Of a DNA stretch of 36,619 bases, positions 15,672 to 36,261 are shown piece after piece. Origin of the DNA: Chloroflexota bacterium (lineage in GTDB: Bacteria > Chloroflexota > Anaerolineae > Anaerolineales > Anaerolineaceae). The notes beneath the pieces were generated by a model. It worked only from the letters and a program-made list of their open reading frames with translations, was not told where the DNA came from and did no database searches. Made by a program: the position numbers and the translations under genes. Position 1 is the stretch's first letter. Every line of letters begins with the position of its first letter. The stretch is taken from contig JAJUJY010000026.1 of the NCBI GenBank assembly GCA_029265085.1, positions 1 through 36,619 of the forward strand, in the 5' to 3' direction.

Positions 15672-16517
15672 TTACTCGTTAAAAAACTCCGCCCAGGGGG
15701 TATTCGCAAATTGTTGTTTCAATTCCGAAAAATTTTTTATCGCCTCGGATAAGGGTTTTTGTGACTGTTTATGCGTTTGCGGTTGAACTGCCACTTCAGG
15801 CAGCCCCAAAAAGCGTTGTATGCGGCTGATCTCGCTCTGGTAATTATGTGCAAGTTCTTCATAAATGATCTCTGTTCGCGGATGATCTTTGAAGAATTGG
15901 TCTGCGTCATTCTCCCATCGCCGGGTGCGTTCAAAAACCTCCCGGCATTCATTGAAATCCAGTTCTACCGGTCCAAATTCTTCTTTTTCTCCGGAAGTAT
16001 TGACCCAGCGGCCTGTCTTTTCAGCTTTTTCACGCGAAAGGTGGGTGCGCAAGATATTTCGCCGTTTGATGTGCAAAATATGGATTTCATGGTGCTCTTT
16101 CAGGTAGTCCCATAACTGGTTGAAAGGAGTATCGGTTGCGTGATAATAAAACAGCTTGAAGCCAACCGCCTGAACAGTGAGGGGTGCTTTGCGAAAGACC
16201 CATTCATCCAGAAAACGCACTGGATTGGTCTGGTAAAGGCTTAATGTGCGTGCGCTGCCAGGATACTGCGGGTGATCGAAATCAATATGATCTGCTTCAC
16301 GGAAAATTTCGCCGAGGGTGACTATCCCAGGATGAGAATCCAGTAAGCCGCGCAGAAAATTCGAACCGGTTCGCGAGCGTCCTAAGATAATAAATCGGGT
16401 GTAATCCGTGTGGCTCTTTAAAAGCCCCAGGTCCATCGCAAGATTGCGGGCAGCCGGATTTTGCAGACGAATCACATCTTTTACTTTGTGGAGTGTATGT
16501 TGCAGGTTGTTTTGCAT
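15672..16517 (-). CDS. Sulfotransferase-family protein
   Basis: 281 residues. The PAPS 5'-phosphosulfate-binding loop is visible as ILGRSRTGSNFLRGLLDSHP (about 44-63), the prokaryotic variant of the sulfotransferase P-loop. The 3'-phosphate-binding region is probably HILHIKRRNILRTHLS. Further conserved parts are the arginine-rich FERTRRWENDADQFF and EIIYEELAHNYQSEISRIQRFLGL, as in Stf0/LPS-type sulfotransferases. It would move sulfate from PAPS to a sugar hydroxyl, giving a sulfated, acidic glycan; an acceptor on the pyrrole acyl group cannot be excluded. No PAPS synthesis genes are in the window. It lies 24 bp after a GT2 and 11 bp before a GT4. Confidence 0.87.
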   Translation of the reverse strand: MQNNLQHTLHKVKDVIRLQNPAARNLAMDLGLLKSHTDYTRFIILGRSRTGSNFLRGLLDSHPGIVTLGEIFREADHIDFDHPQYPGSARTLSLYQTNPVRFLDEWVFRKAPLTVQAVGFKLFYYHATDTPFNQLWDYLKEHHEIHILHIKRRNILRTHLSREKAEKTGRWVNTSGEKEEFGPVELDFNECREVFERTRRWENDADQFFKDHPRTEIIYEELAHNYQSEISRIQRFLGLPEVAVQPQTHKQSQKPLSEAIKNFSELKQQFANTPWAEFFNE

Positions 16518-17447: not shown

Positions 17448-18443
17448 TCAACTCAACCAGGCTGATGGAAAATTCTTGGTGACTTCAATATTCCGGAACT
17501 TTTGGCTCTCACGCGCGCCGTGACTGCGCACCCAATCCGCCATGCGTGCCAGCCCTTCCTCCAGATTGTGCAGGCGGCGTTTTCCAAAAATCCTTTCCAG
17601 CTTTTCATGAGAGGAATAAGCATTTTTTACTTCGTTCCGTGCCGGTAAATAAATGATGCTAGGCGCAACGCCCATAGACCGGGCAACGGTCTCTGCTAAA
17701 TCGTTTACTGTATAAGGCTGGTCAGCGCCAATGTTGAAGATCTGGTTATAAGCGGCAGGGGTATCCACCGCCTCCGCTAAAATGGGAGCGATATCTCGTA
17801 TATAGCTAAAGGCACGGGTTTGGGTACCATCACCAAAAATGGTCATGGGTTTGCCTTGCAATATTTGATTCATGAAAATTCCTACCACGTTGCGATATTT
17901 GTCACCAATATTCTGGCGCTCGCCATAAACGTTATGTGGGCGGAAGATGATGTAATTGAGATCAAACATTTCTTTGCAAACCCGCAGTTCTTGCTCAACG
18001 GCCAGTTTTGCGATGCCGTAGGGGTCTTCTGGAGTGGCAGGCGTTTCCTCTGTCATGGGAAGCTGCGGACTGACGCCGTACACTGCAATGGAGGAGGTGA
18101 AGACGAAACATTTCACACCGGTATTTACAGCAGCATTGATCAGGTTGACGCTGCCGATTAAGTTGTTGTTGTAATTAAATCGTTTGATGAAATGGCTCAG
18201 CCCTTCTGCTGCATAGGCTGCCAGGTGATATACCGCTTCAAATTGATTTTGATCGAATAGATCGTTAATTAGATTGACGTCATTGATGCTGCCTTGGATG
18301 AATTGGGTGCCTTTTACCAGGTTGTCAACAAAACCGCCGCTTAAATCATCCAGGACGGTTACATCGAAGCCTTTATTCACCAATTCTTCTGCGACGTGTG
18401 AGCCGATAAACCCGGCTCCTCCTGTGACTAAAACTTTACGCAT
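17448..18443 (-). CDS. NAD-dependent nucleotide-sugar epimerase/dehydratase (extended SDR)
   Basis: 331 residues. The NAD-binding glycine motif is TGGAGFIGSH (about 7-16), followed by VLDDLSGG and YHLAAYAAEG. Catalytic residues are Ser in FTSSIAVYG and Tyr/Lys in DPYGIAKLAVEQ (Y-x-x-x-K). Substrate-domain motifs include FRPHNVYGERQ and GDGTQTRAFSYIRDIA. This is the GalE/WbpP/Gne-like group acting on UDP-sugars in the cytoplasm, most often 4-epimerisation; a decarboxylase or dehydratase role is less likely. The only sugar-nucleotide enzyme besides GmhB in the window, it sits 18 bp after the AT3 pair and 3 bp before a GT2. Confidence 0.9.
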   Translation of the reverse strand: MRKVLVTGGAGFIGSHVAEELVNKGFDVTVLDDLSGGFVDNLVKGTQFIQGSINDVNLINDLFDQNQFEAVYHLAAYAAEGLSHFIKRFNYNNNLIGSVNLINAAVNTGVKCFVFTSSIAVYGVSPQLPMTEETPATPEDPYGIAKLAVEQELRVCKEMFDLNYIIFRPHNVYGERQNIGDKYRNVVGIFMNQILQGKPMTIFGDGTQTRAFSYIRDIAPILAEAVDTPAAYNQIFNIGADQPYTVNDLAETVARSMGVAPSIIYLPARNEVKNAYSSHEKLERIFGKRRLHNLEEGLARMADWVRSHGARESQKFRNIEVTKNFPSAWLS

Positions 18444-18461
18444 ATATACACCTCGGATCGA

Positions 18462-19568
18462 CTAACCAAACTGGTAAGCATAGATTTTGCGCATTGGGGT
18501 CCGTTTAACCAGAGCCATCAGCGCTAATGGAACGGCCAACCCGGCTGAAATTAAGATGGGTTGGAAAATAAACTGCATGGACAGCAAACCCGGGAACAGG
18601 TGATAGACTGCTTTGGCTGCATAGATTAATACCAACGAGTGGACCAGGTAAATGCCAAAACTTTTACTTCCCAGGTCGCTGATTTGTTGTGAGAGAGGCA
18701 GTTTAACCTGGTCAAAGGCGAGGAAACCAAGAATGAAGGCTGCCGAATACAGATGATCCAGGAGGGTCTCTTTTTGGGTCAGCCAACTTTGACCGGATAA
18801 CCGAATTAAGGATTCCCATTCCAAGATCGCCAGGGGAATCAGGATCACTGCAGCAGCGACCAGAGCCCAACGAATTTTCTGCAAAACGGGTTTGATGGTT
18901 GAATAATGAAATCCAATCACGATGCCTAATGAAAACCAGAAGATACTTCCAGGGAAAAACCAGCCCGGGGTGATCAGAGTCAGGAAGTGATCTGTTGGCA
19001 GTGCTCCCAGGGTTGTGGCGTAGCGAACAGCATGTACGCCTAGTTGAAGGATTGCGCTCAATCCAAGCAGAACTTTTGGCTTGTTTTTTGCCAACGGGGT
19101 GAGCAGCGGAGTCAATAAATAAAGCTGCGAGAGCAGGGGGATAAAATAGAAGGCAGGTGTGGCCTGTCCTAATAAAAGCATTCTTAGGATGTCGAGGGCG
19201 TTATATTTCGCTCCATCGATCAGATTAACTGCAATCATGACCACAGACCAGAGCAGGTATGGAATTACCAGGTAGCGGATGCGGGTGCTAATAAATTTCC
19301 ATCCAGGAAAGGATTGGTTTGAGCGGGTTGAAAAAGCGGTAAAAAAACCGGATACAAATAAAAATGTCGAGATGCTGTACATAATGAGCTGTTCGGCAGA
19401 GCGCAGCCCAAAATATTGAAATGAACCCATCTGGCTGAAATTGGGGGTGCTGACGTCCAAATACCGGTGCGTCCACCAAAACATGGCCACATAGCCCCAT
19501 CCCACCGCATGGTTAATGACCACGCCCAGGACTGCCAGACCGTTCAAATACAACAAACGTTTGACCAT
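18462..19568 (-). CDS. AT3-family membrane acyltransferase (tandem copy 2)
   Basis: 368 residues from the ATG at 19568, chosen because the homologous MVKRLL start is shared with the adjacent paralogue; a GTG at 19622 would add 18 unlikely residues that overlap an intercistronic hairpin. About ten membrane spans carry the AT3 (PF01757) signs: NGLAVLGVVINHAVGWG with the conserved His, and FLFVSGFFTAFST. It ends YAYQFG like its twin. AT3 enzymes move acyl groups to sugars across or at the membrane. Directly downstream of the halogenase/carrier cassette, it is a candidate for delivering the (halo)pyrrole acyl group to the glycan. Plain O-acetylation is the main alternative. Confidence 0.88.
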   Translation of the reverse strand: MVKRLLYLNGLAVLGVVINHAVGWGYVAMFWWTHRYLDVSTPNFSQMGSFQYFGLRSAEQLIMYSISTFLFVSGFFTAFSTRSNQSFPGWKFISTRIRYLVIPYLLWSVVMIAVNLIDGAKYNALDILRMLLLGQATPAFYFIPLLSQLYLLTPLLTPLAKNKPKVLLGLSAILQLGVHAVRYATTLGALPTDHFLTLITPGWFFPGSIFWFSLGIVIGFHYSTIKPVLQKIRWALVAAAVILIPLAILEWESLIRLSGQSWLTQKETLLDHLYSAAFILGFLAFDQVKLPLSQQISDLGSKSFGIYLVHSLVLIYAAKAVYHLFPGLLSMQFIFQPILISAGLAVPLALMALVKRTPMRKIYAYQFG

Positions 19569-19595
19569 GAACTTTGAAGCCCTTTCCGGTTGTAT

Positions 19596-19620
19596 GTATC
19601 CATCCAGGCAGGATGGGTAC
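19596..19620 (-). repeat. Intercistronic hairpin between the two acyltransferase genes
   Basis: GTATCCATCC (19596-19605) and GGATGGGTAC (19611-19620) pair with one mismatch around a 5-base loop, in the 63-bp gap between the tandem AT3 genes. No T-run follows on the minus strand. Confidence 0.45.
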
Positions 19621-19631
19621 ACTTCAGTTCA

Positions 19632-20741
19632 TCAACCGAACTGGTATGAATACAACGGGCGAGCAGGTGATTTTTTCACCGCCGCCATCAACAGGAGTGG
19701 AATACCCAATCCAAATAGAATTAATAGGGGCTGTAAAATAATTTGATGAGCCAATAATTGCGGTGCAAAATGATAAATGCCGCGAGAAAGATATTCCATC
19801 ACTGGGGAATGAACTAAATAAATACCAAAGGATTTTGTTCCCAATGCGGATATTTCTTCACTGAATGGCAGTTTAATTTCAATAAAACTGATGATGCTTA
19901 AGATAAATGCGGCAGCATAAAATCCATCTATGATAGTTTCTCTGCCTTGCAGCCAGGGTTGGCCGGATAATCCTTGCAGCCATTCCCATTCAAAGAACCC
20001 AAGGATAAAGAAACCAACCGCCGCTGACAACCAAACGGTACGAAAGCGGGTAATAAACGGTTTGATGCGCGGTAAGTGAAAGCCCACCACCATTCCGGCC
20101 GCAAACCAGAACAAGCGCACCAGAAAGACCCATTTTGGCAGCATTGTATTCAAAGTACTCCAGATGGGAGCCTGCCAATTTAATGTGCTGGAATAGGTCA
20201 GCAGCAAAACCCCGACCTGTAAAATGGCTGTACTGATTAGCAAAGCTTTCCAGTGTTTCCGGGCAAGCGGCACGAGAAAAGGAGCCAACAGATAAAGTTG
20301 AACCAGTAAGGGTACAAAATAATATGCCGGATTCGCTCCGCCGGTCAGGATCATGACGGGAATCTGGCTTAAGGATGGGATTCTTCCCTCCAGAATCAGC
20401 GCAACCATTAATATCCCTGTCCAGAACAGGTACGGAATCACCAGGAATTTGATTCGGGAGAAGATCGTTTTCCATTCCAGGGTTGGCCGGTTTTGACCGG
20501 TGGAGAAAGCCGTAAAAAATCCGGATACAAACAGAAACGCAGCGATGCTGAATTGCACCAATTGTTCGATCAGGCGCAGCCCATAATATCCCAGGCTGCC
20601 AACCTGATCGAACGGGGAAACCGAGGCAGGTAAATAACGGTGCGCCCAGGAAAACATGGCCACAAATCCCCAGCCACCCGCGTGGAAGAGGATTACACAG
20701 ATTATTGCCAGACCATTTAATACCAACAGACGTTTGACCAT
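19632..20741 (-). CDS. AT3-family membrane acyltransferase (tandem copy 1)
   Basis: 369 residues from the ATG at 20741, which has AGGA five bases upstream; an in-frame TTG at 20765 is the alternative. It is a clear paralogue of the next gene, with matching VKRLL-LNGLA, HAxGWG, FLFVSGFFTAFST, LGxKSFGIYLVHS and YxYQFG. There are about ten spans. Two diverged copies suggest two acceptor sites or two acyl donors. It is the first gene after the halogenase (68 bp, with a hairpin), which is why I link it to transfer of the carrier-bound pyrrole acyl group. AT3 enzymes usually use acyl-CoA; direct use of a carrier protein would be unusual, so this link is inference. The carrier may first hand over to CoA. 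Confidence 0.88.
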   Translation of the reverse strand: MVKRLLVLNGLAIICVILFHAGGWGFVAMFSWAHRYLPASVSPFDQVGSLGYYGLRLIEQLVQFSIAAFLFVSGFFTAFSTGQNRPTLEWKTIFSRIKFLVIPYLFWTGILMVALILEGRIPSLSQIPVMILTGGANPAYYFVPLLVQLYLLAPFLVPLARKHWKALLISTAILQVGVLLLTYSSTLNWQAPIWSTLNTMLPKWVFLVRLFWFAAGMVVGFHLPRIKPFITRFRTVWLSAAVGFFILGFFEWEWLQGLSGQPWLQGRETIIDGFYAAAFILSIISFIEIKLPFSEEISALGTKSFGIYLVHSPVMEYLSRGIYHFAPQLLAHQIILQPLLILFGLGIPLLLMAAVKKSPARPLYSYQFG

Positions 20742-20767
20742 ATTTTCCTGAAACTTTTCCGTCAAAT

Positions 20768-20798
20768 CCTGGCAGATATTTGTTATTTGTTTGCCAGG
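20768..20798 (-). repeat. Hairpin between halogenase and acyltransferase genes
   Basis: CCTGGCA (20768-20774) and TGCCAGG (20792-20798) are perfect inverted repeats with a 17-base AT-rich loop in the 68-bp gap between the pyrrole cassette and the AT3 pair. It may set different expression for the two blocks; no terminator-like T-run is seen. Confidence 0.4.
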
Positions 20799-20809
20799 TG
20801 AATTTGCAG

Positions 20810-22132
20810 CTAATCCGCTGTTAGTCCCGGTGCCTTGTCAGGGGCAACTGCATAGGCCGGGATTGGATCAATCGGCACATCAGAAAGCTGCGACTTGAAC
20901 AGGTGATTTTCGGTTGTTTCCACTTTGCGGATATAGTCACGCATCGCATCCAAAACAGGAACCTCTGTGCGGTCAAAAACTTCCCCTTGCAGCAGGCGAA
21001 TGATTTCAAAGCGGTGCTCTTTGGATTGCACAAAATGGGTGAAGAGCGGCAAGAGCTTGTAGTACAACCGGATAAATTCATACCAGACGTTGACCCCGCC
21101 GCGGATTTTCTTTTCATAAGGCATGAAGGCCGCTGTGCTAAAATCGCCGGTTTCAAATGCCTTAATGATGACCTCAGATGCAAATTTGGCACTGTATTGC
21201 GCAATACTTACCCCGGATGAAAAGATAGGATCCACAAAGCGGGCGGCATCTCCAATCAATACCCACCCGTCGCCAACGAACCGATCCATGCTGTAGCTGT
21301 AATCCCCTTCGGTCTTAAATTCACCTACCCGGACCGCATTTTTCATGGCTGCTTCCAATCGCTTGTTGGATTGGATGTATTTGTTGAAGTATCCTTCCAG
21401 GCTGTTCTTTGACTCAGCAAACATTTCACGCTCGGCGACAACGCCAATTGATGTGATTGTCTCCGTAATCGGAATTTGCCAGGCCCAGCCGCGCTGCACA
21501 GGTAAGAAATAGATATGGATAAAATCTGTAGTAGCCTCGTTTTCACTGCGATCTACCCCTTCAAACCAGGAATACACCGCATATTGGTTGAAAATGGGGT
21601 CTTTTTTCTTGAGACCTAACTGGCGTGCCAGGATGGTATTCCGGCCGCTGGCATCTACCACCATTTTGCTTTCCAGATCAATTTCTTTGCCAGCAAATTT
21701 TGCGCGCACACCACAGGCTTTTCCACTCTCATCAAATAAAACTTGCTTTACATGGACGCCCTGATAAACTTCCGACCCGCTCATTTCGGCATGTTTTAAG
21801 AGCAGCGCATCAAATTTTGCCCGATCAACATGATAGGTGTATGGTTGTTTGATATCCGGCAGTGGATATTCGGAGAACCGCATTGGAAATTCCCGACCGG
21901 TAAAATCGTGCCAGGCAGCTCCAAATTTATGGACAAAATTTTCTTTTTCCATGGTTGGAATAAAGCCGATTTCATCCAAAATGCGGGTTGTGGATGCAAC
22001 CAATGACTCACCGACATGATCACGCGGGTGAATTGCACTTTCAAGAATGATGTTTTTGATCCCGGCTCGCGATAAGAAACTGCCCATCACTGAGCCAGCC
22101 GGACCACCACCAATAATAATGACCTCGTTCAT
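20810..22132 (-). CDS. Flavin-dependent halogenase (carrier-protein-bound pyrrole type)
   Basis: 440 residues. FAD motifs: GGGPAGS at the N-terminus and GDAARFVDPIFSSGV (294-308). The halogenase signature WxWxIP is present as WAWQIP (216-221). The Lys of FVHKFGAAW (K69) is at the position I expect for the catalytic lysine that carries the halogenating species. The SSGV loop and overall length fit the PltA/CmlS-like group that works on tethered substrates rather than free tryptophan. The predicted reaction is FADH2- and O2-dependent chlorination or bromination of a pyrrolyl-S-carrier. The gene follows the carrier by 30 bp and has a GGAGG site. No flavin reductase is in the window. A geranylgeranyl-reductase-like role is the main alternative but would not need WxWxIP. 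Confidence 0.85.
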   Translation of the reverse strand: MNEVIIIGGGPAGSVMGSFLSRAGIKNIILESAIHPRDHVGESLVASTTRILDEIGFIPTMEKENFVHKFGAAWHDFTGREFPMRFSEYPLPDIKQPYTYHVDRAKFDALLLKHAEMSGSEVYQGVHVKQVLFDESGKACGVRAKFAGKEIDLESKMVVDASGRNTILARQLGLKKKDPIFNQYAVYSWFEGVDRSENEATTDFIHIYFLPVQRGWAWQIPITETITSIGVVAEREMFAESKNSLEGYFNKYIQSNKRLEAAMKNAVRVGEFKTEGDYSYSMDRFVGDGWVLIGDAARFVDPIFSSGVSIAQYSAKFASEVIIKAFETGDFSTAAFMPYEKKIRGGVNVWYEFIRLYYKLLPLFTHFVQSKEHRFEIIRLLQGEVFDRTEVPVLDAMRDYIRKVETTENHLFKSQLSDVPIDPIPAYAVAPDKAPGLTAD

Positions 22133-22162
22133 TCCTGCCTCCTGTGGCGTAATTCGAAAATC

Positions 22163-22408
22163 TTAGTTCGCTAACCGCGCCTGCACATAGCTGGAAAGCG
22201 CAGCAACACTTTGAAAATTCTCAAGCACAACATCTTCATCTGCAACGTGGACGTTGAATTTATCTTCAATAAAGGCCACTAATTGCAAAATTCCTAAAGA
22301 GTCAATCACCCCTTCGCTTAACAGGTCATCATTCGGATGAATGTTCGACTTGCGGCCTTTGGCCAGTTCGGCCTGGATATAGTCGGTGAGCACAGACTGT
22401 AAATTCAT
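22163..22408 (-). CDS. Acyl/peptidyl carrier protein for prolyl/pyrrolyl thioester
   Basis: 81 residues, all one carrier domain. The phosphopantetheine site is GVIDSLGILQLV, with Ser37 as the attachment residue. IEDKFNVHVADEDVVLENFQSV is the usual helix III recognition region. GAGGAGG six bases before the ATG gives a secure start. Placement between the adenylation enzyme (23 bp) and the halogenase (30 bp) marks it as the tether on which proline is oxidised and halogenated, in the manner of PltL/CloN5/RedO. It needs a phosphopantetheinyl transferase from elsewhere. A DltC-like role in D-alanylation is argued against by the proline code of its ligase and the dehydrogenase neighbour. Confidence 0.93.
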   Translation of the reverse strand: MNLQSVLTDYIQAELAKGRKSNIHPNDDLLSEGVIDSLGILQLVAFIEDKFNVHVADEDVVLENFQSVAALSSYVQARLAN

Positions 22409-22431
22409 TTGTTCCTCCTCGGGTTTTTTCC

Positions 22432-24018
22432 TTACTGAATCGAAAGCTCAATTGCTCGCGCCTGGAGTTCGCGCCGGTTAATTTTGCCGGTGGAAGTGCG
22501 CGGAAAATCGCTGGTAATACTGATCTTGGCGGGAACTGCGTAGGGGGGCAGCCTTCCGGCAAGGTGAGCGATTAAATCGTGATCATTGATTGTAGAAGCT
22601 GGTTTTAAAATCACTGCTGCTTCAATCAGATTGCTGCCCTGATTATCGGGCACCGGATAAACAGCGGCTTCTTCAACCTCTGAATGAGCTAATAAGGCGG
22701 TTTCGATTTCGTCTAGCTCCACCCGGTAACCGCGAGTCTTTATCTGGCGGTCTTTGCGGCCGAGGAATTTATAATTACCGTCGTCCATTTTTTGCACAAG
22801 ATCACCGGTGCGGTAAAAAATATCCTCGCAGTAACCAAAAATTTGCCGCCGGAAAAATCCTTTATTGGATAGCTCTGACCGACCCCAGTAGCCGCGCATC
22901 ACAATCGGACCGCGAATCAATAATTCGCCAATTTCACCTGGCGCAACCGGATTGCCGTCCAGATCAACGACCAAATCTTCAACATTCGCGCAGGCTTTCC
23001 CAATGGATATCGGTTCGTCATTATCTTCAGCCAATTGTGGAACGTGATAATAAGTGCAGACATTGGTTTCAGTCGGTCCGTACAGGTTGCTGAAAAGTAC
23101 ACTGGGCAGCATTTTCATCAAGTCTCGCAGGTGTTTGGTTGGGAATGGTTCACCGGCGAATAAAATCCAGCGCAAGGCTGATAAATCTTTGTTTGCCAGC
23201 CCGCCATGCTCCATTAATTGCATCAGTGCAAAAGGAACCGAATACCAGACCGAGATGCGTTCCTCCGCTACCCATTTTGAAAGACTGGCAGGAAGCTTGG
23301 TTAGCGCTTCAGAAATGATGCAGGTCGTTGCCCCGGCCACCGCCCCAGCAAAAAAATCAAAAGTAGAGAGGTCAAAATGCAGAGGCGCATGATTGCTCAA
23401 ACGGTCTTCTTGCTGCAGCCCGTAAACATCGGCAGCCCATTCTGCAAAGCTCAAACCGGAACGGTGCGTGTGCATAATCCCTTTGGGCGTACCGGTTGAT
23501 CCCGAGGTGTAGAGAATATAGGCAAGATCCTGTTCCGTAGGTTCAGCCTCTTGAGGATAGGAAGCATCCACCTGGGCAAGTTCAGACCAATCAATGCACT
23601 TTGCAGGCAAGTCTGTGTTGGCTGGCAGCCCAATAAGCGTTTCCACTGTTGTTTCTGCCAAAATTTCTTTTAGCGAATCGACCTTGCCCGGTTGGGTGAT
23701 TAACCAGCGGATGCCGCAATCGTTGATGACAAAATTTATTCTCGCTACCGGCGCAAATGGATCTAATGGAACGTAGGCTGCCCCGGCGGTCAGGATTCCG
23801 TAGATTGCCACAGCGGAGTTGATGTTTTTATTCATGTAGATCCCAACCCGATCGCCGCGGCGGACGCCGGCCGCAATCAAGGTGCGGGCTAACTGGTTCG
23901 CCTGCTGAAAAAGCTCCTGGTAAGAAAGCTGTTGCTTTGAGAAACGCACAGCTGGATGATCTGGGGTTTGGGCAGCCCAGGCAGCAACAGGCTGATGGAT
24001 TAAGAACCGCTGTTTCAT
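22432..24018 (-). CDS. L-proline--[carrier protein] ligase (stand-alone adenylation enzyme)
   Basis: 528 residues with all core adenylation motifs: A3 YTSGSTGTPKG (170-180), A4 HFDLSTFDFF (214-223), A5 LYGPTETN (312-319), A7 YRTGDL (402-407), A8 GRKDRQIKTRGYRVELDEIE (420-439) and A10 TSTGKINRREL with K512. Aligning by hand to GrsA PheA, the ten specificity residues are D216, L217, F220, Y259, L286, A288, L312, V320, C321 and K512, i.e. DLFYLALVCK. I recall this as the proline code of pyrrole-forming ligases (CloN4/CouN4; PltF and RedM differ slightly). The enzyme would make prolyl-AMP and load the carrier encoded 23 bp downstream. A strong AGGAGG site precedes the ATG. DltA-like D-alanine ligase is the rejected alternative. 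Confidence 0.93.
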   Translation of the reverse strand: MKQRFLIHQPVAAWAAQTPDHPAVRFSKQQLSYQELFQQANQLARTLIAAGVRRGDRVGIYMNKNINSAVAIYGILTAGAAYVPLDPFAPVARINFVINDCGIRWLITQPGKVDSLKEILAETTVETLIGLPANTDLPAKCIDWSELAQVDASYPQEAEPTEQDLAYILYTSGSTGTPKGIMHTHRSGLSFAEWAADVYGLQQEDRLSNHAPLHFDLSTFDFFAGAVAGATTCIISEALTKLPASLSKWVAEERISVWYSVPFALMQLMEHGGLANKDLSALRWILFAGEPFPTKHLRDLMKMLPSVLFSNLYGPTETNVCTYYHVPQLAEDNDEPISIGKACANVEDLVVDLDGNPVAPGEIGELLIRGPIVMRGYWGRSELSNKGFFRRQIFGYCEDIFYRTGDLVQKMDDGNYKFLGRKDRQIKTRGYRVELDEIETALLAHSEVEEAAVYPVPDNQGSNLIEAAVILKPASTINDHDLIAHLAGRLPPYAVPAKISITSDFPRTSTGKINRRELQARAIELSIQ

Positions 24019-24028
24019 ACCAATCCTC

Positions 24029-25174
24029 CTACAACCCCATCAGGCGCGCGATGATATTGCGTTGGATGTCTGATGTACCGGAGTAGATTACCCCGCCAAT
24101 AGAATCACGCAAATCATGTTCGATACCGGGTTCCGTTAGATATCCCTTTGCTCCGTGAATCCGAATGGCATCCAGACTGGATTCAACAAATGCCTCACTG
24201 AGATACAATTTGGCAATTGCAGCATCCATGGTCGCATTTTTGCCCTGGCTTTTTAGCCAGGCTACTTTGTAAATCATCAACCGTGCAGTTTCCAGGCGGA
24301 CCTTCATTTCTACAACCCGGTTTGAAACCGATTGAAATTTGCTGATCGATTGATTAAATTGTTTGCGTTCGCGCGCAAATTGAACACTTTGCTCAAGCTG
24401 GTATTCCATTGCACCTAAATTGCTGGCCAGGATGCAGCTGCGCTCCCACTCCATGGATCCGGTGAAAAGCTGTGCTCCTGCGCCTTCCGGTCCCAGGCGG
24501 TTTTCCGCCGGGACAAAAACATCCTTTAATTCCAGCGCCCCCATCGGAATTGTTCGCAAGCCCATTTTGTCAATCACAGGGCTGATTTCTAACCCGGGAG
24601 TCCCGCGGTCAATTACGAAAGCGGTAACGCCCCACATGCCTTTTTCTGGGGCAACGCTTGCAAAAACAACGTAGAAATCAGCGACTGGTCCGCTGGTGAT
24701 ATACGTTTTCGAACCGTTTAGCAGGTAGCCGCTGTCTTGCTTTATGGCAATGGTCTTGAGGCTGTAAGCGTCTGACCCAGAGGTCGGTTCAGACATCGCG
24801 TGTGCGCCGATCAGGTCGCCGCGGATCATGGCTGGAAGATATTTTTCTTTTTGCTGTGCTGTGCCGTGGCTGACGATAGGCATCTGAACACTCCACAACT
24901 GGGCGTTCATACCAAAAATCAGTGCATTATCACGGCTGCCGTATCCCAACCCTTCCATAGCCAACAGCGTGTCCAGAATACCTTTTTCGGCACCACCATA
25001 CTGTTTGGGCATAGGCAATCCAAGGATGCCAAACTCAGCGCACTTGCGCCAGTTTTCGCGAGAGAAACGGCCCAGGCGGTCTCGCTCGATAAATCCATCA
25101 TTGAGATTGTTTTGGGCAAACTCAATAACCGATTTTTTAAATTTGATTTGCTCATCTGACCAAGAAAAATCCAT
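24029..25174 (-). CDS. L-prolyl-carrier protein dehydrogenase (acyl-CoA dehydrogenase family)
   Basis: 381 residues, full-length acyl-CoA dehydrogenase fold: N-terminal helices, middle FAD region (AMSEPTSGSDAYSLKTIA at about 126-143, SKTYITSGPVADFYVV) and C-terminal bundle (ERKQFNQSISKFQSVSNRVVEM, ending IYSGTSDIQRNIIARLMGL). The usual catalytic Glu of YEGT is Ser here. Instead E244 in GSMEWERSCIL lies where isovaleryl-CoA dehydrogenase and, from memory, the prolyl-PCP dehydrogenases PigA/RedW/PltE carry theirs. Predicted job: four-electron oxidation of L-prolyl-S-carrier to pyrrolyl-2-carboxyl-S-carrier. It starts after AAAGGAG and ends 10 bp before the ligase. Ordinary fatty-acid oxidation is unlikely because no other such genes are present. 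Confidence 0.88.
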   Translation of the reverse strand: MDFSWSDEQIKFKKSVIEFAQNNLNDGFIERDRLGRFSRENWRKCAEFGILGLPMPKQYGGAEKGILDTLLAMEGLGYGSRDNALIFGMNAQLWSVQMPIVSHGTAQQKEKYLPAMIRGDLIGAHAMSEPTSGSDAYSLKTIAIKQDSGYLLNGSKTYITSGPVADFYVVFASVAPEKGMWGVTAFVIDRGTPGLEISPVIDKMGLRTIPMGALELKDVFVPAENRLGPEGAGAQLFTGSMEWERSCILASNLGAMEYQLEQSVQFARERKQFNQSISKFQSVSNRVVEMKVRLETARLMIYKVAWLKSQGKNATMDAAIAKLYLSEAFVESSLDAIRIHGAKGYLTEPGIEHDLRDSIGGVIYSGTSDIQRNIIARLMGL

Positions 25175-25210: not shown

Positions 25211-26419
25211 CTAAGCTGCCTGCAGACAGGTCTGGAAATGGTCTTCCAGATGTTGGGTGGCATTTTCCCAGGTCCATTGTTTGAGAACCAGGTCCCGTCC
25301 CTGGCGGCCGTAATTATTGGCTAAATCGAGATTGGCAGTCACTTCTTGAATCGCTCTTGAAAACAAAGATTCTTCCCGTTCGACCAACATGCCAGTCACT
25401 TGATCAATTACCGATTCAACCAGGCCGCCTTCCCGCACACCGATTACTGGTGTTCCGCAGGCCATTGATTCCAATGCGACCAATCCAAAGGGTTCGCGCA
25501 CGGGAGCATATACGGTTGCCGATGCGCGGTTATACAGTTCCACCAGGGTTTGGTCGGGAATGCCGTTTTTTAAGTGCAAATCAATTCCCAGATTTTGCGC
25601 AAGATCCTGCAAATAGCCGCGTTCTGGCGAGTTTTCAAAGTTGCTGGCAATCCACAGGCCAGGGCGTTCGCTTGCTGGAATTAATCCCAATGCACGCAGG
25701 ATAAAATCAAAGCCCTTTAATGGGGTCAGTGACCCAACGGAAATTACAAATTTCTCTTTGGATAATCCAAGCGGACGGAAAAATTCCGCATCCACACCTA
25801 GATAATTGATTTGCGCATCTACCTGGTAAATTGCTTTAACTGCCTTACGAATATTTTCTGAATTGACCAGGACCAAATTGGCTTTGCGAATATTTTCCTG
25901 GTCTGTTTTGCGCAGCAGCCAGCGGTAATACCTCAGGAATGGATCGATTTTGTCGATCCATTGCCGGTAAGACGCATCCTGCCGGTTGTATGGCCGGGGA
26001 GGCATGGCTTCATATAACAGCCGCAGCGGCTCGTGACAATAAAAAACGCTTGGTGTGCGGCGCAAATACCGCAGAACGGATGGGGAATTTTCAAACTGGC
26101 ACGGCTCTACAAAAACAAGGTCAAACTGGTTGGCATCGATGGTTTGGGCAATCTTGCGGTAAAGAGTGCGTAATCGCTGCAAATCTCCAGCCCGAATCAG
26201 TTGATTAAACCGGCCAAAGGGCGATTTTAACAGGCGGGAAGGATTAAATTCATAGACATGATGTTCATTAACCCAGGGGCGAATATCGCCAAATTCATGA
26301 TTGGCGCTGGAAAGGGTATAAACAGAAAGGTGGTGTTTACCGGACAACCGCCGTGTAAACTCAACCAGGGTCCGTTTAGCCCCGCCAGAGGGAAGATTGT
26401 GGAAAATGGCGATTTTCAC
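25211..26419 (-). CDS. GT4-family glycosyltransferase
   Basis: 402 residues with a GTG start. The sequence begins VKIAIFHNLPSGGAKRTLVEFTRRL, with GGAKR as the acceptor-side loop. Donor-side motifs are YLGVDAEFFRPLG, VISVGSLTPLKGFDFIL, LVELYNRASATVYAPVREPFGLVALESMACGTPVIG, containing the E-x7-E arrangement (E in REPFGLVALE). It is a standard retaining GT4. Placed between the FOXRED2-like flavoprotein (8 bp) and the prolyl dehydrogenase (36 bp), it may add the sugar that receives the pyrrole acyl group; this is inferred only from position. Confidence 0.92.
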   Translation of the reverse strand: MKIAIFHNLPSGGAKRTLVEFTRRLSGKHHLSVYTLSSANHEFGDIRPWVNEHHVYEFNPSRLLKSPFGRFNQLIRAGDLQRLRTLYRKIAQTIDANQFDLVFVEPCQFENSPSVLRYLRRTPSVFYCHEPLRLLYEAMPPRPYNRQDASYRQWIDKIDPFLRYYRWLLRKTDQENIRKANLVLVNSENIRKAVKAIYQVDAQINYLGVDAEFFRPLGLSKEKFVISVGSLTPLKGFDFILRALGLIPASERPGLWIASNFENSPERGYLQDLAQNLGIDLHLKNGIPDQTLVELYNRASATVYAPVREPFGLVALESMACGTPVIGVREGGLVESVIDQVTGMLVEREESLFSRAIQEVTANLDLANNYGRQGRDLVLKQWTWENATQHLEDHFQTCLQAA

Positions 26420-26427
26420 CGCAGCTC

Positions 26428-28014
26428 TTAATCCTGAGACAATTGAACTGCCTTTTCAGCAGAATCAATGGCCATATCCTGATTACCGCTTAACTGCTGG
26501 TTGAAAAATTCACGGGCGGGTTTGATGTACACATCCAATACCCACTCATTTTCCAGATCATCTTGTATATGATGCTCTGTTACTTTTTCCATGCGGTTAA
26601 ATCGGCGAATAATTGGATGCAGGTAAAATGCTTCGTTTCCTTTCATTGGGTCTGGATCGCGTTCGGTGCTAAAGGTAGCGCCGTGTGAATTGCCGTATTC
26701 CAGCGTAAGGGTGTAATAATGTTCTTTATCTTTCAAGAAGGTGTTGTGCAGATTGTCCTTCCGCAGATCGGAATAACAGGATGCGGTACCATCTGAATTG
26801 ATCACAACCACTTCGCTGAGGAAGCTGGGTTGTAAGAAAATGCCTGTGGCATGGTTTGCCCGGTCCAGCATATGCTGCAAGACCGATTCTGGATCTGCTG
26901 AAATTATTTTTGCCTGGTACTGTTTTCCATGGTATTTGTTTTCCAGTATCTGGCTTAAGGCATACACATTGTGGCGAAAACCGTGAATAAAGCCTGACAT
27001 CGTTCTGCGATAATCACAGGCTTGCATGATGGTTCCCGCAAAGTAGAGATTTTTGACATTTGCCGATTCCCATTCGGTGGTTTGGGCAGGGAAACGATCA
27101 TTGATCATCAATTCCGGACGGCAGTTTTCATCAAAAATCGATGCATCAAAGCGGAAGCCAGTGCAGGCAATGATTTTGTCATATTCGTTAACGCGGGTCT
27201 GCCCCATTGCGTGACTGTAGGAGAAATGAGTCAAATAATGATCGCCCTTTTTCTCAACCCAGTCGAGCGTAGCGTCAATGACAGCATTTTGGGATTTCAA
27301 CTGGTACGTGTCCAAAAAATTATTATTGACGGCCCGCAGGTTGCCAACAAAGTGTGTATCCCAGGCAAATTTTATGGAATGCGGGCTTAACATGTGGATC
27401 ACAGCGGCGGAACCGGTCAGATATTCTGCGGTTTCAAAGGCGGAGTTGCCTTTTCCAATGATCAAAACCCGTTTGTTCTTGTACTCTTCCAAATTGAGAG
27501 AGTGTTCTCCATAGGTGTCGATTAATTCAATGCCGGGAATATTGGGAATGTTTTGTTTGGAAACTCCGGTGGCTACAATAAGGCGCTTGGCTGTGTACTG
27601 ATTGTTTTCCGAATCGGTGACGACAAAATTTTGATCATCTCGTTGTACACGGGAAACATTGGTCTGGTAGCGGATTTTTAACCGGTAATATCCGGCAAAA
27701 TCAGCCATATAGCGCAGCAAATCATCAGGAGAGGGGAAATACTTGTCGCTGTAATGAACAAAGCGTAAATCTTCGTTATCGCAAAGCAGCGAATTCCAGT
27801 CATAGCGCATGCGGACGTCCGGATTGGTTTTACCAGTATTCACTTTGTTAATCGAAATCAGCATGCGATGGCGGGGAAAAGTTTTAAAGAATGTACCGGG
27901 GCTGCTGCCGCGTTCTAAGATCAAGTAATCGCGGTTATTCTTCTCGAGGTAATACGCCAATTGCAAACCGGCGGGACCGGCGCCGATGATTAGATAATCT
28001 ACTTGAGTTTTCAT
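26428..28014 (-). CDS. FOXRED2-like FAD-dependent oxidoreductase / monooxygenase
   Basis: 528 residues from the ATG at 28014, supported by AAAGGAG ten bases upstream; the longer open frame to 28287 runs through the promoter and into the next gene and is rejected. FAD Rossmann motif IIGAGPAGLQLAYYLE (9-24), then ERGSSPGTFFKTFPRHRMLISINK and RYDWNSLL, and a second nucleotide-binding motif VLIIGKGNSAFETAEYL (182-198). HMLSPHSIKFAWDTHFVGNLRA and NNFLDTYQLKS are very like vertebrate FOXRED2 (ERFAD) as I remember it. FMO-like enzymes of this group use NAD(P)H and often oxygenate a small molecule. First gene after the promoter and upstream of the pyrrole cassette, so a tailoring role on the acyl group or sugar is possible; the substrate is unknown. 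Confidence 0.85.
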   Translation of the reverse strand: MKTQVDYLIIGAGPAGLQLAYYLEKNNRDYLILERGSSPGTFFKTFPRHRMLISINKVNTGKTNPDVRMRYDWNSLLCDNEDLRFVHYSDKYFPSPDDLLRYMADFAGYYRLKIRYQTNVSRVQRDDQNFVVTDSENNQYTAKRLIVATGVSKQNIPNIPGIELIDTYGEHSLNLEEYKNKRVLIIGKGNSAFETAEYLTGSAAVIHMLSPHSIKFAWDTHFVGNLRAVNNNFLDTYQLKSQNAVIDATLDWVEKKGDHYLTHFSYSHAMGQTRVNEYDKIIACTGFRFDASIFDENCRPELMINDRFPAQTTEWESANVKNLYFAGTIMQACDYRRTMSGFIHGFRHNVYALSQILENKYHGKQYQAKIISADPESVLQHMLDRANHATGIFLQPSFLSEVVVINSDGTASCYSDLRKDNLHNTFLKDKEHYYTLTLEYGNSHGATFSTERDPDPMKGNEAFYLHPIIRRFNRMEKVTEHHIQDDLENEWVLDVYIKPAREFFNQQLSGNQDMAIDSAEKAVQLSQD

Positions 28015-28055
28015 GCGAGAGATACTCCTTTCGGGGTGTTGGCTCAACAATAATA

Positions 28056-28070
28056 AAAATAGTCTATTTT
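28056..28070 (-). promoter_or_regulatory. 15-bp palindrome at the predicted transcription start (operator candidate)
   Basis: AAAATAG-T-CTATTTT is a perfect 7+1+7 palindrome about 11 bases downstream of the -10 element, covering roughly +4 to +18 of the promoter for the FOXRED2-like gene. Its place and symmetry fit binding of a dimeric repressor; the protein is unknown. Confidence 0.45.
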
Positions 28071-28080
28071 GATCAAATAA

Positions 28081-28109
28081 ATCATAATTGTAAATAAAAA
28101 AACATTCAA
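28081..28109 (-). promoter_or_regulatory. Sigma70-like promoter for the long glycan/pyrrole operon
   Basis: On the minus strand TTGAAT (28104-28109) and TATGAT (28081-28086) are 17 bases apart in a very AT-rich 137-bp gap (28015-28151). The start of transcription is predicted near 28074, giving a leader of about 60 bases. Downstream genes from 28014 to 4365 have gaps of at most 68 bp, so this may drive most of the locus. Confidence 0.6.
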
Positions 28110-28151
28110 CTGATTCTAATAAAATACGAATAAATACCCCCAAAAAACAGG

Positions 28152-31640: not shown

Positions 31641-33500
31641 CTAATCCAAAAACAGGCGGTGCCAGATTTCAATCGACATTAACGCCCCAATGCGCACTGT
31701 CTGGCTTTTTCCGGCCATGTGATCCGCCACAATCTGGCGAATTCGTTCCGGTTTAAAGTAGCCTCGTTCTAAAGAGCGGTCATTCAACAGGGTCTGTTCA
31801 ACCCAGGGGCGTAAAACACCTCGAAACCAGGATGTGTAATCTTTATACGGCCGTTGGGTTGGTCCTGTCAGGCTGCTGAGCCCCATTCGCTGCAAATGCC
31901 AGCGCAGGAAATGCCAGTTGCGCAGCAAAATCTCGCGGCCGCAGGAAACCATCGGAAGGCCGGTGCGGGCCAGGGGAACCCGTGCAAGTTTTGGGTAGGC
32001 CTGGATAAATGCGCGGGTCATCAAGTCGCGCTCATAGCGCAGCCAGGGTGGGACCGTTAATGCAAATTCAACAAAGTCGTTATCACCAAAAGGTACTCTG
32101 GCAACAGACCGGCTGCGTACCATTTCGACACCGTTTAAAGTCATGCGGGGAACGCGCTGGGTCAGGTCAAAATAAATACGCTGGTTGGCCAGTTGGCGGG
32201 ATCCTGAGGCTTGAAATCCGGCTTTAAAATCATCCATCAATCCGCTGCCTGCCTGGCGTTGGAAGTCTTCAGTAAACAGCGATGGGTGTTCGGGAAGGTC
32301 AAACGTTAGGACATTGTAATCGCGATAGGCTTCAAGGTGTACTTCAGACCGGGTTGTGTCATCATAGTCAGCCCAGAAGCGCGGGCGGATTCCAAACCCC
32401 ATAATGGCATCTCCCATAAATCCCTTATGAATGACCTGGGCAAATTGGGATTCTTCTTTCATGTTTGCCAGGGCATGTAAATTGACAATGTTTCCCATCC
32501 CATCGGTTCTGCGTACACCTTCTTCGCCTAGGTGCAGCAGCCAATCCGGCTTTAATTCAAAAAAATGATGTTGAATGTTTGGGTATAAGCTGGCTGCTTC
32601 ATTTGCGGAGCGGGCATCGTCTGAACCAGGGATCGACCAGGTGAAGGTATGGAGCGGTTTGATACTGCTTTGTTCACCGAAAACGGCCAGCAGCATCCGC
32701 GAATCTAAGCCGCCGCTGAGCATCAACCCGGCTGTTAAATTGTCGCTGTTTTGCCGGTGGACTGCCAAACGAATCGCCTCGATGAATTCGTCCATATATT
32801 CCGCTTCCGGACGCATGGGATAGGTGTCCGGCTGCTCAAATCGATAATAGGGTTGGATCGAAAGAGTATGATTTTGATAGATCAACACGGCTGCCTGCGG
32901 CAAAAGTTGAACACTTTGCAGCAGCGTACGGTGTTGCAGCAGGTGATCAAAGGTCAAAAATTCGGCTAATGCTACCCGATCTACTTCGCGAGAGACTGCC
33001 GGATCTGCCAACAGCGCACGCACACCGGAGCTAAAAATAAATCCTTGCGCGAATTGAGCATAATATAAGGGGAAAAGTCCCAGGCGGTCATTGGTAATGA
33101 GAAGCTTTTGCGAACGTTGATCCCAAATGGCTGCGATAAACGCACCATTGATTTGGGCAGCAAATGTATCACCATCTTCCAGGTACAACTGCAAGAGAAG
33201 TTCAGCCGTATTGTTGGAGCGAAGCACCCGGCCTTTGCCTTGCAGGAATCCTCGTAAAATATCTGCATTATAAACCTCGCCTTCCAGAACGATCCCAACC
33301 GACTGATCATCTGTCCAAACGGGTTGACTTTCCGGGTTAAGAATTTTTAAACTGATTCTGCCAAAGCCAAACCCATTTTCGGTATAAAAATCACTGGAGA
33401 AACGCTCTTCGGTTTCTAAAGCGCTTGCCATACCCGCTAAACGGTGATTAACCTGGTCTTGATTAAGTCGAGGTTGGATCGTTCCAAAAATTCCTGGCAT
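31641..33500 (-). CDS. Asparagine-synthase-like amidotransferase lacking the glutaminase cysteine
   Basis: 619 residues with the AsnB layout: N-terminal Ntn-type glutaminase-like domain (1-about 210) and a synthetase domain with the PP-loop LSGGLDSR (261-268). Active AsnB begins MCGI with Cys2 as nucleophile; this one begins MPGIFG, so Cys2 is Pro and glutamine hydrolysis by the normal route is not possible. The NTAELLLQLYLEDG and NDRLGLFPLYY blocks of the fold are kept. Relatives in glycan loci (WbtH, WbpS-like) amidate uronic acids; others, as in lasso-peptide or antibiotic pathways, form other amides. This enzyme may use free ammonia or another amine to amidate a sugar carboxylate. The ATG is unambiguous, 32 bp after the GT2 stop. 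Confidence 0.88.
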   Translation of the reverse strand: MPGIFGTIQPRLNQDQVNHRLAGMASALETEERFSSDFYTENGFGFGRISLKILNPESQPVWTDDQSVGIVLEGEVYNADILRGFLQGKGRVLRSNNTAELLLQLYLEDGDTFAAQINGAFIAAIWDQRSQKLLITNDRLGLFPLYYAQFAQGFIFSSGVRALLADPAVSREVDRVALAEFLTFDHLLQHRTLLQSVQLLPQAAVLIYQNHTLSIQPYYRFEQPDTYPMRPEAEYMDEFIEAIRLAVHRQNSDNLTAGLMLSGGLDSRMLLAVFGEQSSIKPLHTFTWSIPGSDDARSANEAASLYPNIQHHFFELKPDWLLHLGEEGVRRTDGMGNIVNLHALANMKEESQFAQVIHKGFMGDAIMGFGIRPRFWADYDDTTRSEVHLEAYRDYNVLTFDLPEHPSLFTEDFQRQAGSGLMDDFKAGFQASGSRQLANQRIYFDLTQRVPRMTLNGVEMVRSRSVARVPFGDNDFVEFALTVPPWLRYERDLMTRAFIQAYPKLARVPLARTGLPMVSCGREILLRNWHFLRWHLQRMGLSSLTGPTQRPYKDYTSWFRGVLRPWVEQTLLNDRSLERGYFKPERIRQIVADHMAGKSQTVRIGALMSIEIWHRLFLD

Positions 33501-36245: not shown

Positions 36246-36261
36246 ATATTTCACCAATTAT

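What the first reader, a model, noticed from the sequence alone, without database searches (positions are those of the whole stretch)
20810..25174. Complete L-proline to (halo)pyrrole-2-carboxyl-S-carrier cassette inside a polysaccharide locus
Seen: four adjacent same-strand genes, an ACAD-family dehydrogenase, a stand-alone adenylation enzyme, an 81-aa carrier and a WxWxIP flavin halogenase, each with a strong ribosome-binding site. Known: this set (PltE/F/L/A; CloN3/N4/N5; Bmp2-4) builds halogenated pyrrole acyl groups for small antibiotics. Inference: here it is flanked by GT4, GT2, sulfotransferase, Wzz/BY-kinase and ligase genes, so the acyl group probably decorates a surface polysaccharide or glycolipid. 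I know of no described halopyrrole-bearing bacterial polysaccharide.
Basis: partly seen in the sequence, partly recalled or inferred. Interest (0 to 1): 0.93.

Follow-up and report, generated by a model that had tools for sequence, protein, structure and literature searches.

The report
Halopyrrole decoration module in polysaccharide locus
A Chloroflexi gene cluster for a cell-surface sugar polymer carries a plug-in module that appears to turn proline into a halogenated pyrrole and pass it across the membrane onto the polymer, a kind of decoration known so far from small antibiotics.

Summary
The four genes are as reported: prolyl-carrier dehydrogenase, proline-code adenylation enzyme, carrier protein and PltA-type halogenase. 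The module recurs in Anaerolineae polysaccharide loci. Where it is absent and both border genes are neighbours (four loci), they lie 5-133 bp apart, against 5.6-8.0 kb in three measured loci with it. AT3 genes were found in 8 of 8 surveyed loci with the module, 0 of 14 close and 2 of 7 distant loci without it. The module's AT3s keep the TMH1 histidine but lack an arginine that is essential in characterised relatives (0 of 21 aligned have it; 43 of 46 background AT3s have Arg/Lys), suggesting a carrier-bound donor. Best reading: a Dlt-like system placing (halo)pyrrole-2-carboxyl esters on a surface polysaccharide. The final transfer and the acceptor are inferred; no glycan was analysed. Two of 11 loci lack a halogenase, and two lack a linked dehydrogenase. 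A cultured type strain, Bellilinea caldifistulae, carries the locus, so the prediction is testable.

The parts
24029..25174 (-). L-prolyl-S-carrier dehydrogenase (ACAD fold), 381 aa; catalytic Glu244
   Evidence: PDB 4irn prolyl-ACP dehydrogenase 443 bits; best chain named acyl-CoA dehydrogenase 250, though 6cxt_B, named butyryl-CoA dehydrogenase and paired with a carrier, scores 326; NCBIfam PigA 442 and RedW 383 vs AcrC 293, all below curated cut-offs; tree 100/100; Glu column kept in 22 of 22 rows
22432..24018 (-). stand-alone L-proline adenylation enzyme, 528 aa; code DLFYLALVCK
   Evidence: 6o6e, an L-proline--carrier ligase, is top hit for the core region (205 bits) and shares 8 of 9 code residues; 9 of 10 glycan-locus enzymes incl. 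window share the code, the tenth is DLLYLALVCK
22163..22408 (-). carrier protein, 81 aa, phosphopantetheine site Ser37
   Evidence: PF00550; best solved relative 2my5 (PltL by recall), 39 bits; Ser37
20810..22132 (-). PltA-type FADH2-dependent halogenase, 440 aa; Lys69, WxWxIP, FVDPIFSSG
   Evidence: PltA 418, ChlB4 407, 5buk (Mpy16 by recall) 403 bits; next 191; tree and motifs; Lys69 and both Trp kept in 120 of 120 nearest database proteins, window's own included
19632..20765 (-). AT3a: membrane acyltransferase (PF01757), proposed acyl-carrier-to-glycan transferase; true start probably at 20741 (Met9)
18462..19622 (-). AT3b: second membrane acyltransferase (PF01757); true start probably at 19568
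   Evidence: PF01757 E 6.2e-25; same residue pattern
25211..26419 (-). GT4 glycosyltransferase; upstream border of the module
   Evidence: PF00534; lies 5-133 bp from the epimerase in four loci without the module
17448..18443 (-). NAD-dependent sugar epimerase; downstream border of the module
   Evidence: PF01370; 72-83% identity in 15 of the 22 survey loci with marker identity of 59% or more
26428..28014 (-). FAD/NAD(P) oxidoreductase that travels with the module; role unknown
   Evidence: PF13738 on the longer ORF 26428-28287; in 6 of 8 surveyed loci with the module and 0 of 21 without it; start with GGAG at 28014
15672..16517 (-). sulfotransferase of the glycan locus
   Evidence: PF13469
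13037..14458 (-). Wzy_C-type polymerase/ligase
   Evidence: PF04932
6495..8159 (-). Wzz/BY-kinase chain-length protein
   Evidence: NCBIfam eps_fam 122 bits, over its cut-off of 108
31641..33500 (-). AsnB-like amidotransferase of the glycan locus
   Evidence: PF00733, PF13537
16542..17444 (-). GT2 used as the survey marker of the glycan locus
   Evidence: PF00535

Best explanation
The locus makes a surface polysaccharide, and the six-gene stretch 18462-25174 is a plug-in module that decorates it with pyrrole-2-carboxyl groups, usually halogenated. Steps: (1) the adenylation enzyme loads L-proline onto the carrier protein; (2) the dehydrogenase oxidises prolyl-S-carrier to pyrrolyl-2-carboxyl-S-carrier; (3) the halogenase puts Cl or Br on the tethered pyrrole; (4) AT3a/AT3b take the acyl group from the carrier's phosphopantetheine arm at the cytoplasmic face, pass it through the membrane pore and esterify a sugar hydroxyl on the exported or lipid-linked glycan. 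It works like Dlt D-alanylation (recalled), but with a (halo)pyrrole as the acyl group and AT3 instead of MBOAT/DltD. Steps 1-3 are inferred from close family membership with active-site residues kept. Step 4 and the glycan as acceptor are inferred from synteny, co-occurrence and AT3 residues. No step has been shown by experiment.
For: Family identity and residues of all four enzymes. Module behaviour: GT4-to-epimerase gap 5, 59, 88 and 133 bp in four loci without it, against 5,596, 6,768 and 7,952 bp in three with it. AT3 genes in 8 of 8 survey loci with the cassette, 0 of 14 without it at 59% or more marker identity, 2 of 7 at 45-49%. An AT3 also lies beside the cassette in an unrelated NRPS context (L055). 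In two loci without the module a hexapeptide acyltransferase follows the same GT4 (L086, L088). Cassette AT3s: TMH1 Arg 0 of 21, Asp 0 of 21, His 22 of 22, TMH3 Arg 23 of 23; background Anaerolineae AT3s: Arg/Lys 43 of 46; two cassette AT3s left out of that alignment also read Asn. The Arg is essential in OafB, OacB and HGSNAT, and the superfamily's conserved residues mostly contact the adenosine and phosphopantothenate parts of CoA (PMC12423673). HGSNAT-like fold.
Against: No biochemical or glycan data. Bellilinea and G002 have no dehydrogenase in the locus, an antiporter gene in its place; the nearest candidate is unlinked and 46% identical. Two of 11 loci have no halogenase. The halogenase needs O2 (recalled), yet Bellilinea is described as strictly anaerobic (title), although its genome encodes COX1 and cytochrome bd. 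Arg loss does not prove a carrier donor: GWT1, whose solved structure holds palmitoyl-CoA (title), is described as lacking a DxxR motif, and the passages I read do not say that the Arg contacts the nucleotide end. The Arg rule has exceptions here: two carrier-linked AT3s keep Arg (L129, L146) and five Arg-less AT3s show no adenylation gene in the stretch held, one of them on a 3.9 kb contig. Loci are related, and the pair test that respects the tree has one supported pair and so no power.
Confidence: 0.6

Rival explanations
1. The cassette makes a small diffusible halopyrrole or pyrrolyl glycoside (an antibiotic, as in clorobiocin), and its place among glycan genes is incidental; the AT3s acylate that small molecule.
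For: All characterised relatives known to me serve small molecules (recalled). Related genes occur with NRPS-like genes in this class: L055 by Pfam, L065, L067 and L068 by adenylation-domain BLAST hits only. CloN7 transfers a pyrrole acyl to a sugar of a small antibiotic (PMC11218499 passages).
Against: In 11 loci the cassette sits among the glycan genes, and a Wzy relative was found in 9 of 11; the other two, G132 and UBA11857, are on short contigs. No NRPS or PKS domain other than the stand-alone enzymes was found among the 30 window ORFs scanned with Pfam.
Confidence: 0.2
2. The AT3s are ordinary O-acetyltransferases of the glycan, and the pyrrole is added by another, unrecognised enzyme.
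For: AT3s of glycan loci are often O-acetylases; several database relatives are named OafA/YrhL or O-acyltransferase. GWT1 shows that an AT3-fold enzyme without DxxR can use acyl-CoA.
Against: AT3s were not found in the 14 close loci without the cassette, some of them short, and one lies beside the cassette in an NRPS context (L055). The TMH1 Arg is lost in 21 of 21 aligned cassette AT3s. No other acyltransferase family was found in the 30 window ORFs scanned.
Confidence: 0.13
3. The halogenase-like protein no longer halogenates here, or works elsewhere, so the decoration is plain pyrrole-2-carboxyl.
For: Two of 11 loci have no halogenase in the locus (L044, L056); Bellilinea is described as strictly anaerobic.
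Against: The three motifs read are intact in the window, Bellilinea and the other close relatives, and Lys69 and both Trp are kept in 120 of 120 nearest proteins, window's own included. Three loci carry two close copies (L036, L049; L004). The two genomes lacking it in the locus carry one elsewhere (L040, L045).
Confidence: 0.15

Closest known systems
Pyoluteorin/clorobiocin/prodigiosin prolyl-carrier pathway (PltF/L/E/A, CloN4/N5/N3, PigI/G/A; gene names partly recalled)
   Same: adenylation enzyme, carrier, dehydrogenase and (Plt) halogenase; code and catalytic residues match where compared
   Different: here embedded in a polysaccharide locus and followed by two membrane AT3 acyltransferases; dehydrogenase and halogenase are optional between loci
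Dlt D-alanylation of teichoic acids (and AlmEFG; recalled)
   Same: logic: stand-alone adenylation enzyme plus carrier feeds a membrane acyltransferase that modifies a surface glycan
   Different: proline is oxidised and halogenated on the carrier; AT3/TmAT fold instead of MBOAT DltB, and no MBOAT or DltD family among the 30 window ORFs scanned
AT3 O-acyltransferases of glycans (OafB, OacB, OatA; HGSNAT fold relative)
   Same: Pfam PF01757, HGSNAT-like fold, TMH1 His, TMH3 Arg
   Different: DxxR is LxxN in 20 of 21 aligned cassette members and LxxS in one; linked to a carrier protein
CloN7-type transfer of pyrrole-2-carboxyl to a sugar (clorobiocin)
   Same: pyrrole ester on a sugar hydroxyl
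   Different: small antibiotic, acting with a second carrier CloN1; CloN7 is not a membrane AT3 (recalled, not tested)

Membership tests
prolyl-carrier to pyrrolyl-carrier pathway | stand-alone adenylation enzyme with the proline code | tested here: met
   DLFYLALVCK; solved ligase 6o6e shows DLLYLALVC at the first nine positions
prolyl-carrier to pyrrolyl-carrier pathway | ACAD of the prolyl-dehydrogenase clade with Glu base | tested here: met
   tree 100/100 against two acyl-CoA dehydrogenase rows; Glu244 aligns with a Glu of 5zw0 that is Ala in chain 6af6
prolyl-carrier to pyrrolyl-carrier pathway | free carrier with phosphopantetheine Ser | tested here: met
   Ser37; 2my5 best solved relative
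prolyl-carrier to pyrrolyl-carrier pathway | activity: proline to pyrrolyl-S-carrier | not testable with these tools
   needs enzyme assay
PltA-type carrier-dependent flavin halogenase | WxWxIP, active-site Lys, PltA clade | tested here: met
   motifs intact; Chloroflexi clade sister to PltA/ChlB4/5buk with moderate support 83/74
PltA-type carrier-dependent flavin halogenase | pyrrole rather than another acyl as substrate | tested here: inconclusive
   ChlB4 scores almost as well as PltA; ChlB4's substrate is recalled to be not a pyrrole; the substrate follows from the neighbouring genes
AT3 / TmAT acyltransferase | PF01757 and HGSNAT-like fold | tested here: met
AT3 / TmAT acyltransferase | TMH1 DxxR with essential Arg | tested here: not met
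   Asn or Ser in 21 of 21 aligned cassette AT3s, two more read Asn; it is an AT3 by Pfam family, fold and other motifs but lacks this residue, so CoA use is not claimed
AT3 / TmAT acyltransferase | TMH1 His, TMH3 Arg | tested here: met
   22 of 22 readable and 23 of 23
Dlt system | MBOAT DltB and DltD | tested here: not met
   no such Pfam family among the 30 window ORFs scanned
Wzx/Wzy polysaccharide locus | polymerase/ligase and Wzz/BY-kinase | tested here: met
Wzx/Wzy polysaccharide locus | flippase and initiating phosphosugar transferase | tested here: inconclusive
   34704-36257 has about 11 hydrophobic segments but no Pfam family; no initiating transferase among the 30 ORFs scanned, and the window ends nearby

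The most novel reading that the evidence does not exclude
A new class of surface-glycan decoration: carrier-protein-fed AT3 acyltransferases, marked by loss of the otherwise essential TMH1 arginine, move amino-acid-derived aromatic acyl groups such as halopyrrole across the membrane onto bacterial polysaccharides. A second adenylation/carrier/AsnB/AT3 system in or near sister loci would use the same trick with a different acyl group.
Probability: 0.4. Interest if true: 0.88.

Novelty: new variant of a known kind. Interest (0 to 1): 0.76.

Why it matters
Halogenated heteroaromatic groups are known on antibiotics; I found no report of one on a bacterial polysaccharide (searches; open-access library only, hits mostly seen as listings). 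If true, antibiotic chemistry has been recruited to modify cell surfaces in an environmental phylum, such loci could be misread as small-molecule clusters, and AT3 proteins gain a carrier-protein donor. A cultured type strain, Bellilinea caldifistulae GOMI-1, has the locus.

Tried and rejected
Window genome: none held, so the rest of the chromosome could not be checked. Predicted structure of the flavoprotein 26428-28014 was poor (mean pLDDT 59.7) and was not used. Sequence search of AT3a in solved structures gave nothing; Foldseek had no match with E under 0.001, and the second-look aligner found HGSNAT and GWT1. Considered and rejected: the dehydrogenase as a beta-oxidation enzyme; the ligase as DltA or a fatty-acid ligase (by score and code, no tree). 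The tree-aware pair test of AT3 against cassette had one supported pair, so it has no power. Literature searches gave no halopyrrole glycan: searches returned nothing; some searches were seen as listings only; one search was about Bellilinea, and passages of two of its papers were seen.

Rows dropped before counts: of 55 AT3 places, 47 entered; three are Bellilinea's own cassette AT3s and five are fragments. One row of the 47 had a gap at the Arg column, and 2 of 23 cassette AT3s were cut at the N-terminus. Two further cassette AT3s (G132 and G365) were not in that alignment; both read Asn. One ACAD (L063) could not be pulled out as an open frame and is missing from the tree. In one search halogenases of 330 aa or less were left out. 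The 2x2 count of Arg loss against a nearby adenylation gene (7 of 9 against 5 of 49) mixes two samples, related rows, and some short contigs. Of the 14 close loci without the cassette, four stretches are under 15 kb (5.7, 14.6, 4.4 and 10.3 kb), so a missed AT3 is possible there. Direct GT4-epimerase neighbourhood was seen in 4 of the 21 loci without the cassette; the others lack the GT4 relative in the stretch held, have other genes between, or end too early.

Full report
Observation. The four ORFs are present exactly as described, tightly spaced, each with a GGAG-containing site upstream. Two more genes of the same run, 19632-20765 and 18462-19622, are membrane acyltransferases of family AT3 (PF01757). 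The rest of the window is a polysaccharide locus: ten GT2/GT4 glycosyltransferases, a PMT_2 protein, a sulfotransferase, an AsnB-like amidotransferase, an epimerase, a Wzy_C polymerase/ligase and a Wzz/BY-kinase.

Enzymes. PDB chains are named here as the tables name them; PltF (6o6e), PltL (2my5), Mpy16 (5buk) and Bmp2 (5bul) are names recalled. The dehydrogenase scores 443 bits against the solved prolyl-ACP dehydrogenase 4irn, 326 against 6cxt_B (named butyryl-CoA dehydrogenase, solved with a carrier), 321 against 5zw0, and 250 or less against the remaining chains. NCBIfam gives PigA 442, RedW 383 and AcrC 293, all under the curated cut-offs. In a tree of 27 rows it lies with 4irn, 6cxt_B and 5zw0, split 100/100 from two acyl-CoA dehydrogenase rows; the catalytic Glu is kept in 22 of 22 rows aligned. 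The adenylation enzyme carries DLFYLALVCK; 6o6e has the same residues at 8 of 9 aligned code positions. Over the whole protein LgrA scores highest (427 bits, two stretches summed), 6o6e 337. Among ten glycan-locus enzymes incl. the window, nine share the code and one reads DLLYLALVCK. The carrier keeps its Ser and is nearest to 2my5 among solved chains. The halogenase scores 418, 407 and 403 bits to PltA, ChlB4 and 5buk, and 191 to the next. Its Lys69, WxWxIP and FVDPIFSSG motifs are intact, and Lys69 and both Trp are kept in 120 of 120 nearest proteins, the window's own included. Because ChlB4 scores so close (its substrate, recalled, is not a pyrrole), the pyrrole substrate rests on the neighbouring genes.

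Related loci. A genome scan gave nine loci, all with Chloroflexi-type titles, the best in Bellilinea caldifistulae GOMI-1 at 71%. In Bellilinea and in G002 the gene order of most of the window is kept. In a sample of 396 genomes of the class, the halogenase (E up to 1e-60) is in 13, the dehydrogenase (E up to 1e-125) in 18, and the glycan marker GT2 16542-17444 (E up to 1e-85) in 29. I read the neighbourhoods of all 29 marker places and all 19 dehydrogenase places, as far as the fetched stretches reach.

The module. Of the 29 marker loci, 8 carry adenylation enzyme and carrier of this type; all 8 also carry AT3 genes. Of the 21 without it, AT3 genes were found in 0 of 14 with marker identity of 59% or more, and in 2 of 7 at 45-49% (Fisher 8/8 against 0/14 p 3e-6, 8/8 against 2/21 p 1e-5; loci are related, so these are not true probabilities). 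The 14 stretches are 4.4-20 kb long, four of them under 15 kb. In four loci without the cassette the flanking GT4 and epimerase are 5, 59, 88 and 133 bp apart; in the window, Bellilinea and G005 they are 6,768, 7,952 and 5,596 bp apart, with the cassette and AT3 genes between them. In two loci without the cassette a hexapeptide acyltransferase follows the same GT4 (L086, L088). Among dehydrogenase places outside glycan loci, an AT3 gene was found in one of 12 (G171, L055, an NRPS context). On the marker tree the cassette needs six changes on the best tree, but supported branches force only one.

Variation. Counting the window and two further loci (G002, UBA11857), 11 cassette loci are known here. 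Nine have at least one PltA-type halogenase and two have none (G005, G380); those two genomes carry one elsewhere beside a TauE permease (L040, L045). Eight have the dehydrogenase. Bellilinea and G002 do not; an antiporter gene stands in its place (Na_H_Exchanger by Pfam in Bellilinea; 86% identical in G002). Their unlinked dehydrogenases are 46% identical but fall in the prolyl clade and keep the Glu. The eleventh contig starts inside the adenylation gene.

Oxygen. Flavin halogenases need O2 (recalled). Bellilinea is called strictly anaerobic in the title of its description, seen only in reference lists, yet G001, the genome that holds L001, encodes COX1 and cytochrome bd, so some O2 use is plausible.

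Comparison. Loading, oxidation and halogenation are the known pyoluteorin-type route. Pyrrole esters on a sugar are known from clorobiocin (passages of PMC11218499). A carrier-fed membrane acyltransferase acting on a glycan is the logic of Dlt (recalled). The combination, and AT3 as the carrier-fed transferase, I could not find in the library searched, which lacks most subscription journals.

Verdict. A real, recurrent module; chemistry up to halopyrrolyl-S-carrier very likely; transfer to the glycan likely but unproven.

Noticed in passing
L037, L039, L049, L129, L136, L139, L142, L143, L146: A second adenylation/carrier/AsnB-like system lies in or near such glycan loci, with an AT3 in the stretch held in all but L049 of these, and an NAD_synthase-like gene seen in L136. 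The adenylation code reads DYYPTTMRTK in the three members read, L037, L039 and L049.
   Followed up: partly
window 26428-28014 (- strand): A Pyr_redox_3 flavoprotein with a C-terminal extension travels with the cassette: 6 of 8 surveyed loci with it, 0 of 21 without. It could supply reduced flavin or modify the acyl group.
   Followed up: partly
L001:5584-6873, L003:11379-14550, L050:2059-3345: Na_H_Exchanger-type antiporter genes sit beside halopyrrole-type genes in three different settings (those of L003 by BLAST only).
   Followed up: no
L040:15061-17621 and L045:8370-10976: PltA-type halogenase next to a TauE-family permease, away from the cassette, in the two genomes whose glycan cassette lacks a halogenase.
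   Followed up: partly
L112:9173-12326 and L118:2043-4455: Arg-less AT3s with no adenylation gene in the fetched stretch, each beside a DUF362 protein.
   Followed up: partly
L036:11819-12853: A 344-aa ORF without a Pfam family stands between the border GT4 and the dehydrogenase.
   Followed up: no
G001 (Bellilinea caldifistulae): COX1 and cytochrome bd genes in an organism described as strictly anaerobic.
   Followed up: no
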